This document shows positions 4,102 through 45,541 of a stretch of 64,000 bases of DNA, piece after piece. Below the pieces are notes generated by a model, which saw only the letters and a list, made by a program, of their open reading frames with translations, made no database searches and was not told the origin of the DNA. The stretch is from Halorussus caseinilyticus (GTDB lineage: Archaea > Halobacteriota > Halobacteria > Halobacteriales > Haladaptataceae), in the NCBI RefSeq assembly GCF_029338395.1, contig NZ_CP119809.1, forward strand, positions 3,224,001-3,288,000, read 5' to 3'. The position numbers and the translations under genes were made by a program. Positions within the stretch are counted from its first letter, which is position 1. Every line of letters begins with the position of its first letter.

Positions 4102-4174
4102 GGGACCGTGGGGTAGCTTGGTATCCTTTCGGCCTTGGGTGCCGATAACCCCGGTTCGAATCCGGGCGGTCCCA
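4102..4174 (+). tRNA. tRNA-Pro(UGG)
   Basis: A complete cloverleaf of 73 nt. Acceptor arms GGGACCG and CGGTCCC pair fully, with discriminator A. The anticodon stem TCGGC/GCCGA (4129-4133/4141-4145) encloses the loop CTTGGGT with anticodon TGG at 4136-4138. The T stem CCCGG/CCGGG encloses TTCGAAT. There is no intron and CCA is not encoded, as usual in archaea. A TTTACA box about 33 bp upstream (4070) may be its promoter. Confidence 0.95.
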
Positions 4175-45183: not shown

Positions 45184-45296
45184 GGGCTGGTAGCTCAGTT
45201 AGGCAGAGCGTCTGGCTTTTAGCACGACACACCCGGAGATTCCGGATGGTCGTGGAAGACACCAGACGGCCAGGGGTTCAAATCCCTTCCAGCCCG
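45184..45296 (+). tRNA. tRNA-Lys(UUU) with a 39-nt intron
   Basis: Acceptor GGGCTGG (45184-45190) pairs with CCAGCCC (45289-45295), discriminator G45296. The anticodon stem TCTGG (45211-45215) pairs with CCAGA (45262-45266). The loop is CTTTTA (45216-45221) plus A45261, with anticodon TTT at 45218-45220. The intron, 45222-45260, lies at the canonical 37/38 position. It can form CACGAC/GTCGTG with an inner CCGG helix, consistent with the bulge-helix-bulge the archaeal endonuclease needs. T arm AGGGG/CCCTT with TTCAAAT. The promoter region upstream is AT-rich. Confidence 0.92.
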
Positions 45297-45298
45297 CT
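45275..45298 (+). other. left copy of a 24-bp tRNA-Lys 3'-end direct repeat (putative att site)
   Basis: The T-loop and acceptor end of tRNA-Lys, from GGTTCAAATCCC to CCAGCCCGCT, recurs exactly at 45485-45508. Integrases of haloarchaeal elements commonly use tRNA 3' ends, leaving such repeats. The sequence between the copies is only 186 bp. Confidence 0.65.
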
Positions 45299-45431
45299 AT
45301 CTTTTGCGACGAGCAACACGGCGAGCGCCTCGTGCGCTCGCCACTCCGCGAGTCGCAAAGTACGATGCTAAAAGGATTCGAACCCTGCAAGTCGCACGCC
45401 CGCGTGGTTCGAGAGCAACGCTCTCGTCATC

Positions 45432-45452
45432 CCGAAAATCTCCGATTTTCGG
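45432..45452. repeat. hairpin inside the putative att interval
   Basis: CCGAAAATC (45432-45440) pairs with GATTTTCGG (45444-45452) across three bases. A second small hairpin CGAGAGC/GCTCTCG is just upstream at about 45410-45426. Neither is associated with a gene. Confidence 0.5.
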
Positions 45453-45484
45453 CGACAACGAAGTGAGCAGGAACGTCTTGCTCC

Positions 45485-45508
45485 GGTTCAAATCCCTTCC
45501 AGCCCGCT
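45485..45508 (+). other. right copy of the 24-bp tRNA-Lys 3'-end repeat (putative att site)
   Basis: Identical in 24 bp to the mature tRNA-Lys 3' end, including discriminator G and one base beyond. The flanking TTCTGCGACGA also resembles the original TATCTTTTGCGACGA flank after a short deletion. It has no 5' half, so it is not a functional tRNA. Confidence 0.65.
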
Positions 45509-45541
45509 TCTGCGACGAACGAAGGTGAGGAGCGAAGCGAC

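What the first reader, a model, noticed from the sequence alone, without database searches (positions are those of the whole stretch)
45275..45508. tRNA-Lys 3' end duplicated 210 bp downstream: scar of an integrated element
Seen: a 24-bp exact repeat of the tRNA 3' end at 45275-45298 and 45485-45508, with similar GCGACGA flanks beyond both. Only 186 bp lie between, containing two hairpins and no integrase. Known: integrative elements recombine at tRNA 3' ends and regenerate the tRNA. Inferred: a vestige of an element whose interior was deleted, or a very small satellite-like insertion. It also marks an insertion hot spot.
Basis: partly seen in the sequence, partly recalled or inferred. Interest (0 to 1): 0.6.

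Follow-up and report, generated by a model that had tools for sequence, protein, structure and literature searches.

The report
Shuffling tRNA-tail repeat units in haloarchaea
The repeated tRNA end is one example of a small hairpin-bearing repeat unit that sits behind many tRNA genes in almost all salt-loving archaea examined, each unit carrying a copy of the end of the tRNA it follows; it looks like a DNA module that can recombine at tRNA genes rather than the scar of one lost element.

Summary
The repeat is real: 24 bp, 45275-45298 and 45485-45508, 186 bp apart, behind an intron-containing tRNA-Lys(UUU) of a Halorussus-type haloarchaeon. It is not a private scar. In this genome 15 of 46 tRNA genes carry such a unit. 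A covariance model of the unit hits 374 of 391 Halobacteria genomes and none of about 241 genomes of other classes. The hits examined lie just behind a tRNA on the same strand (43/45, 20/20 and 48/52 loci or hits), each followed by a copy of that tRNA's own end. The copied block is sharply bounded: T-loop base 54 to discriminator base 73, in 28 isoacceptor types. Before the copy stands a hairpin: an arm complementary to the tRNA end, a covarying stem with invariant AG/CT and a T.T mismatch, and a variable tip. Its mismatches do not follow RNA wobble rules (GT:AC 9:6, against 50:1 in tRNA stems). Units occur singly, in tandem, and in permuted order in related species. No large element lies between copies in 23 related tRNA-Lys loci. 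I favour recombining tRNA-tail cassettes with a folded DNA site, integron-like in form but without integron integrase. Structure and distribution are shown; recombination is inferred. An RNA-trailer role and passive duplication remain open.

The parts
45184..45296 (+). tRNA-Lys(UUU) gene with a 39-nt intron (45222-45260 by my reading; anticodon 45218-45220)
   Evidence: RF00005 57.8 bits; ARAGORN intron mode gives tRNA-Lys(ttt)
45277..45296 (+). identity block, first copy: tRNA bases T54 to discriminator 73
   Evidence: exact repeat; block boundaries from 86 units and a second set of 45
45297..45365 (+). trailer with hairpin H1 (stem TTTTGCGAC/GTCGCAAAG, 45302-45360)
   Evidence: inverted repeat I2; DNA fold z -3.4; same trailer stands behind copy 1 in relative G015
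45364..45508 (+). hairpin unit H2: inverted T-arm, closing stem, variable tip and tRNA-end copy
   Evidence: model R1 hit G000:C1:3269364-3269508, 64.5 bits, E 3.8e-15; DNA fold z -3.0
45372..45384 (+). antisense arm AAGGATTCGAACC, complementary (with mismatches) to the tRNA T-arm/acceptor end and to its copy
45387..45394 (+). closing stem 5' side GCAAG, T of the T.T mismatch, then CG
   Evidence: covariation in 113 distinct units
45389..45479 (+). core plus variable tip; 90-98% identical to 9 dispersed copies of this genome away from tRNAs
45474..45481 (+). closing stem 3' side CG, T, CTTGC
45487..45506 (+). identity block, second copy (non-functional tRNA 3' end)
45507..45540 (+). trailer of the type that stands directly behind tRNA-Lys in relatives G007 and G015

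Best explanation
The feature is one unit of a class-wide haloarchaeal repeat family. Unit = tRNA 3' end (bases 54-73) + trailer + hairpin H2, closed by a second copy of the same 54-73 block. Shown: occurrence, close linkage to tRNA 3' ends, sharp block, covarying hairpin with invariant AG/CT and T.T mismatch, tandem arrays, gain/loss and permuted order. Inferred: units recombine as DNA cassettes. H2, extruded or single-stranded, is the recognition site; exchange happens at the G53/T54 boundary at the start of the T-loop; a trailer travels with the 3' end it is attached to. Any copy can become the working tRNA end, so purifying selection keeps all copies identical down to base 73 but not beyond. 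The enzyme is unknown; a tyrosine recombinase is the natural candidate.
For: Linkage: 43 of 45 best loci, 20 of 20 low-scoring loci, 48 of 52 further hits lie behind an ARAGORN tRNA on the same strand; own-end copy without mismatch in 36/43, 16/20 and 28/48. Block: identity 0.95-1.00 at bases +1 to +20, 0.34 three bases upstream, 0.69 then background after the discriminator (86 units); repeated on a second set (45 of 48). Permutation: tRNA-Lys trailers beta|alpha here, alpha|beta in G015, alpha|alpha in G007; tRNA-Arg(GCG) delta|gamma in G014, gamma|delta in G009, five tandem units in G005. Hairpin: two closing pairs Watson-Crick in 108 and 111 of 113 units against 40 and 66 expected; inner pair 113/113 as C-G, G-C or T-A; AG/CT invariant; T.T in 94. 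DNA not RNA: GT:AC in H2 core 9:6 against 50:1 in tRNA acceptor and T stems (p 3e-4). Copy number 2-37 per genome inside one family.
Against: No recombinase was identified: integron integrase 0 of 40 genomes over cut-off, and no virus or plasmid was found to carry the unit (the single hit was not examined). No excision product was seen. Units of 106-240 bp are very short for double-stranded circles. Order of gain was not resolved: mismatches do not rise steadily away from the tRNA. The wobble test counts related sequences as independent and the core counts are small. In-block identity is inflated because copies were accepted at <=3 or <=6 mismatches. Homologous or slippage recombination could also permute trailers.
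Confidence: 0.45

Rival explanations
1. RNA-level trailer element: the unit is co-transcribed with the tRNA and H2 plus the second 3' end act as a back-up processing or termination signal, or are released as a small RNA, much as recalled for the E. coli tyrT repeats and rtT RNA.
For: Always downstream and on the tRNA strand where a tRNA was found; conserved structure with covariation; copies end exactly at the discriminator, where 3' processing cuts; a T-rich stretch often follows tRNA and copy.
Against: H2 stems lack the GT-over-AC excess of real RNA stems; the copy lacks the 5' T-stem strand, so it cannot form a T-arm; only 15 of 46 tRNA genes here have a unit, and orthologous tRNAs differ in having it. 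No expression data were available.
Confidence: 0.25
2. Passive product: local tandem duplication of tRNA 3' ends, template switching that corrects imperfect palindromes, and homologous exchange between direct repeats, without dedicated enzyme or function.
For: Long direct repeats running into the trailer at some tRNAs (81 bp at L052, 80 at L066); identical neighbouring units in G005; arms that are Watson-Crick with few wobble pairs fit palindrome correction.
Against: The same sharp 54-73 block at 28 isoacceptor types; the same invariant AG/CT and T.T hairpin core in unrelated loci across the class; absence outside the class.
Confidence: 0.2
3. One reading: scar of a larger integrated element that lost its interior.
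For: tRNA 3'-end direct repeat; haloarchaeal integrated elements do leave such repeats (43 nt at tRNA-His in Haloquadratum, PMC3119063, passages read).
Against: Recurrence behind 28 isoacceptor types and in 374 of 391 genomes with one conserved interior; no large element at the orthologous tRNA-Lys of 23 relatives; no hit in plasmids or phages.
Confidence: 0.04

Closest known systems
E. coli tyrT 178-bp repeats / rtT RNA (recalled, no paper read)
   Same: Tandem units downstream of a tRNA gene, each carrying about 19 nt of that tRNA's 3' end.
   Different: One locus in enterics against 28 isoacceptor types across an archaeal class; no Rfam family matches here; no inverted tRNA arm is recalled for tyrT.
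Integron cassette arrays with attC sites (PMC8946536, passages read; PMC9668308, passages read)
   Same: Array of units with an imperfect palindrome that has an unpaired spacer and a variable terminal part, little sequence conservation, order that changes.
   Different: No gene cassettes and no integron integrase; anchor is a tRNA T-loop; the arms are copies of the host tRNA. The archaeal integron paper has no 'Halobacter' in its main text.
tRNA-targeted integrative elements of archaeal tyrosine recombinases (PMC8371274, passages read)
   Same: Identity block that restores the tRNA 3' end; T stem-loop is a known target region.
   Different: No integrase, no cargo, 100-200 bp, many tRNAs with one shared hairpin.
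MITE/REP-type hairpin repeats (recalled)
   Same: Short, multi-copy, palindromic, non-coding.
   Different: Units are tied to tRNA ends and their arms are tRNA-specific; the dispersed B repeats of this genome fit this label better.

Membership tests
tRNA-integrated mobile element or its scar | direct repeat of the tRNA 3' end | tested here: met
tRNA-integrated mobile element or its scar | integrase or cargo between the repeats | tested here: not met
   no plausible gene in 45299-45484
tRNA-integrated mobile element or its scar | larger version at the orthologous tRNA of relatives | tested here: not met
   0 of 23 relative tRNA-Lys loci, searched to 1.5 kb downstream
tRNA-integrated mobile element or its scar | same site on a virus or plasmid | tested here: not met
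   (80 of the 102 stretches); L630 not examined
Integron cassette array | folded imperfect palindrome with unpaired spacer and variable tip | tested here: met
   in form only:
Integron cassette array | integron integrase | tested here: not met
   TIGR02249 over cut-off in 0 of 40 genomes
Integron cassette array | gene cassettes | tested here: not met
   units of 106-240 bp without visible genes
Integron cassette array | demonstrated excision and insertion at one point | not testable with these tools
   only indirect: sharp boundary, permuted order
tyrT/rtT repeats | repeat units carrying the tRNA 3' end | tested here: met
tyrT/rtT repeats | homology to the curated RNA family | tested here: not met
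   no Rfam match but tRNA at gathering score; none but tRNA and one sub-threshold Plastid-ycf2 at E<=1
tyrT/rtT repeats | released RNA | not testable with these tools
   no expression data
structured non-coding RNA | stems that tolerate G-U but not A-C | tested here: not met
   GT:AC 9:6 against 50:1 in tRNA stems
MITE/REP repeat | dispersed insertion independent of tRNA genes | tested here: not met
   43/45, 20/20 and 48/52 directly behind tRNAs

The most novel reading that the evidence does not exclude
Nearly all haloarchaea carry a tRNA-anchored, integron-like cassette system. A tRNA T-loop serves as the fixed insertion point, a folded DNA hairpin with an invariant AG/CT and T.T core as the mobile site, and an unidentified recombinase swaps tRNA 3' ends together with their trailers, so that tRNA genes are continually rebuilt from interchangeable tails.
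Probability: 0.2. Interest if true: 0.9.

Novelty: new variant of a known kind. Interest (0 to 1): 0.74.

Why it matters
A conserved hairpin unit behind a large share of tRNA genes in a whole archaeal class would be a new class of repeat. It could explain how tRNA trailers turn over, and it offers a natural test of how recombinases came to use tRNA genes. It also warns that a short tRNA-end repeat in haloarchaea is not by itself evidence of a lost element.

Tried and rejected
Scar of a deleted element: rejected on recurrence, conserved interior and lack of larger versions.

Whole spacer as a MITE: the 91-bp tip matches dispersed repeats, but the rest of the unit is tRNA-linked, so this is exchange of the tip, not insertion of a MITE at the tRNA. 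B repeats show no direct repeat of 11 bp or more across them in 10 of 10 loci checked.

RNA switch (inverted arm pairing with either tRNA or copy): possible in sequence, but the wobble test argues against an RNA helix.

Polarity of unit gain (youngest next to the tRNA): no consistent trend. Large insertions displacing arrays: in G012 a 1.4-kb stretch encoding what I read as a transcription factor B lies between tRNA-Leu and a displaced unit; in G077 and G075 no intact tRNA with that end within 40 kb.

The closing-stem counts were misregistered by my pattern and are replaced; its outer-arm counts may be off by a few bases. Searches of the paper library for tRNA-linked repeats or trailers of haloarchaea and for tyrT/rtT listed nothing on such units; most subscription papers are not in that library.

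Full report
OBSERVATION. The 24-bp direct repeat is at 45275-45298 and 45485-45508, behind a tRNA gene at 45184-45296. The gene is tRNA-Lys(UUU) with an intron, which is why plain ARAGORN missed it. By my reading the intron is 45222-45260. No plausible gene lies in the 186 bp between.

IT RECURS IN THE GENOME. I searched the own genome for tRNA genes (45 by Rfam) and read 1.5 kb behind each. Of 45, 12 have a copy of their own last 20 nt with at most 1 mismatch within 300 nt downstream; shuffled flanks gave 0 per genome in 200 repeats, and upstream and 5'-end controls gave 0 of 45. Weaker or shifted copies exist at others. A 46th gene, tRNA-Trp with a long intron, also carries a unit (L226; the tRNA-Trp name is my reading). 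With the model described below, 16 hairpin units stand behind 15 of the 46 tRNA genes. tRNA-Leu(GAG) (L080) has a 238-bp duplication without the hairpin.

ANATOMY. After the tRNA come a trailer, usually with its own hairpin (H1), then a short arm complementary to the T-arm and acceptor end of the same tRNA, then a stem, a variable tip, the other side of the stem, and a second copy of the tRNA end, after which a trailer follows again. The inverted arm fits its own tRNA better than others: mean score 10.7 against 7.7, mean rank 0.13, 39 units. Over 113 distinct units the two closing pairs are Watson-Crick in 108 and 111 (40 and 66 expected from column composition), the next A-T and G-C pairs are invariant, a T.T mismatch is kept in 94, and the pair behind it is Watson-Crick in 113 as C-G, G-C or T-A. 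The units are related sequences, and relatedness was not corrected for.

DISTRIBUTION. Model R1 (33 units) hits 28 of 28 genomes of the family, 2 to 37 matches each. Named hits place the family with Halorussus. It hits 374 of 391 genomes of the class at E<=1e-6 (at most 10 candidates scored per genome). In a phylum-wide draw 50 of 294 genomes hit, all 50 in the own order; by subtraction about 241 genomes of other classes have none. Among 45 best loci, 43 have an ARAGORN tRNA on the same strand just upstream, with 0 mismatches in the 20-nt copy in 36 of the 43; the other two (L204, L205) lie beside tRNA fragments. To avoid relying on the best hits I took 20 low-scoring loci: 20 of 20 behind a tRNA, 16 with a perfect copy. 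A further 40 loci with 52 hits gave 48 of 52, 28 of the 48 perfect; the other four lie beside tRNA fragments or masked sequence. In four relatives, 20 loci chosen by an exact core motif were checked: 19 have an ARAGORN tRNA, and the 20th (L145) shows a tRNA-Glu-like 3' half by eye.

THE BLOCK. Aligning 86 first copies with their tRNAs (28 isoacceptor types, one of them an unassigned ARAGORN call) shows identity of 0.95-1.00 at each of the 20 positions from T54 to base 73. G53 is 0.99, the next base upstream 0.78 and the one before 0.34. After base 73 identity is 0.69 and then falls to background. Copies were accepted at <=3 mismatches, so the level inside is inflated; the edges are not. The second set (45 of 48, accepted at <=6) shows the same edges.

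RNA OR DNA. In tRNA acceptor and T stems of 104 tRNAs G-T pairs outnumber A-C 50 to 1. In the H2 core they are 5:4 plus 4:2 in the second set, 9:6 together, p 3e-4. In the outer arms they are 11:34 and 12:9. The hairpin is therefore not kept as an RNA helix of the tRNA strand; a DNA palindrome or folded single strand fits better. The core numbers are small.

DYNAMICS. At tRNA-Lys the trailer behind the tRNA and the one behind the copy change places between species: beta then alpha here, alpha then beta in G015, alpha twice in G007. At tRNA-Arg(GCG), G014 has delta then gamma, G009 gamma then delta, G005 five tandem units, and this genome none. Some relatives have no copy at tRNA-Lys (G009, G016, G021, G022 among them). 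Trailers thus move with the tRNA end they are joined to, as expected for exchange at the start of the T-loop.

THE WINDOW'S OWN UNIT is long because its tip (45389-45479) matches, at 90-98% identity, 9 dispersed repeats of this genome away from tRNA genes: tips are exchanged too.

MECHANISM. I commit to recombining tRNA-tail cassettes with a folded DNA site (0.45). The steps from occurrence to permutation are shown; the enzyme, the site of strand exchange and the single-stranded state are inferred. The likeness to attC sites rests on passages of PMC8946536. No genome of 40 has an integron integrase above the curated cut-off, so membership is not claimed. No plasmid or phage record matches the region, and 80 of 102 viral stretches sharing the core motif show nothing convincing under the model (best E 0.056).

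LITERATURE. Haloarchaeal integrated elements with tRNA-end repeats are known (PMC3119063, passages), and archaeal recombinases target the T stem-loop (PMC8371274, passages). In Haloferax volcanii two RNA 3' ends were mapped behind one tRNA-Pro (PMC7237163, passage); whether that gene has a unit I could not check. My searches listed no description of these units. The E. coli tyrT repeats are recalled, not read.

Noticed in passing
L084-L086, L088, L089, L091, L092, L094-L097, L099, L100, L104 (own genome): A dispersed repeat of about 200 bp (GGATAAAGGGGCCGCCCGCTCGC ... GCGAGCGGGCGGGGGCTTT, some copies partial), four-way-junction-like by eye, carrying the same AGTCGCACGCCCG core away from tRNAs. 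Matches in 25 of 28 family genomes, up to 33 each; no Rfam match in the copies scanned.
   Followed up: partly
L226 (G000:C1:1376898-1376992): A tRNA read as tRNA-Trp with a long intron, missed by the Rfam tRNA search, carries a unit too.
   Followed up: no
L685+L686 (G012:C1:632800-672600): A 1.4-kb stretch with an open frame that I read as a transcription factor B lies between tRNA-Leu(TAG) and a displaced unit beside a decayed second tRNA-Leu.
   Followed up: partly
L666, L662, L651: Units behind tRNA 3' fragments without a recognised 5' part; for L666 (G077) and L662 (G075) no intact tRNA of that end within 40 kb upstream.
   Followed up: partly
window 4102-4174: The other tRNA of the window, tRNA-Pro(TGG), has no copy of its end downstream.
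   Followed up: yes
L080 (own genome, tRNA-Leu GAG): A 238-bp tandem duplication of the tRNA end and trailer without the H2 core; its spacer holds a second piece of tRNA-Leu variable arm.
   Followed up: no
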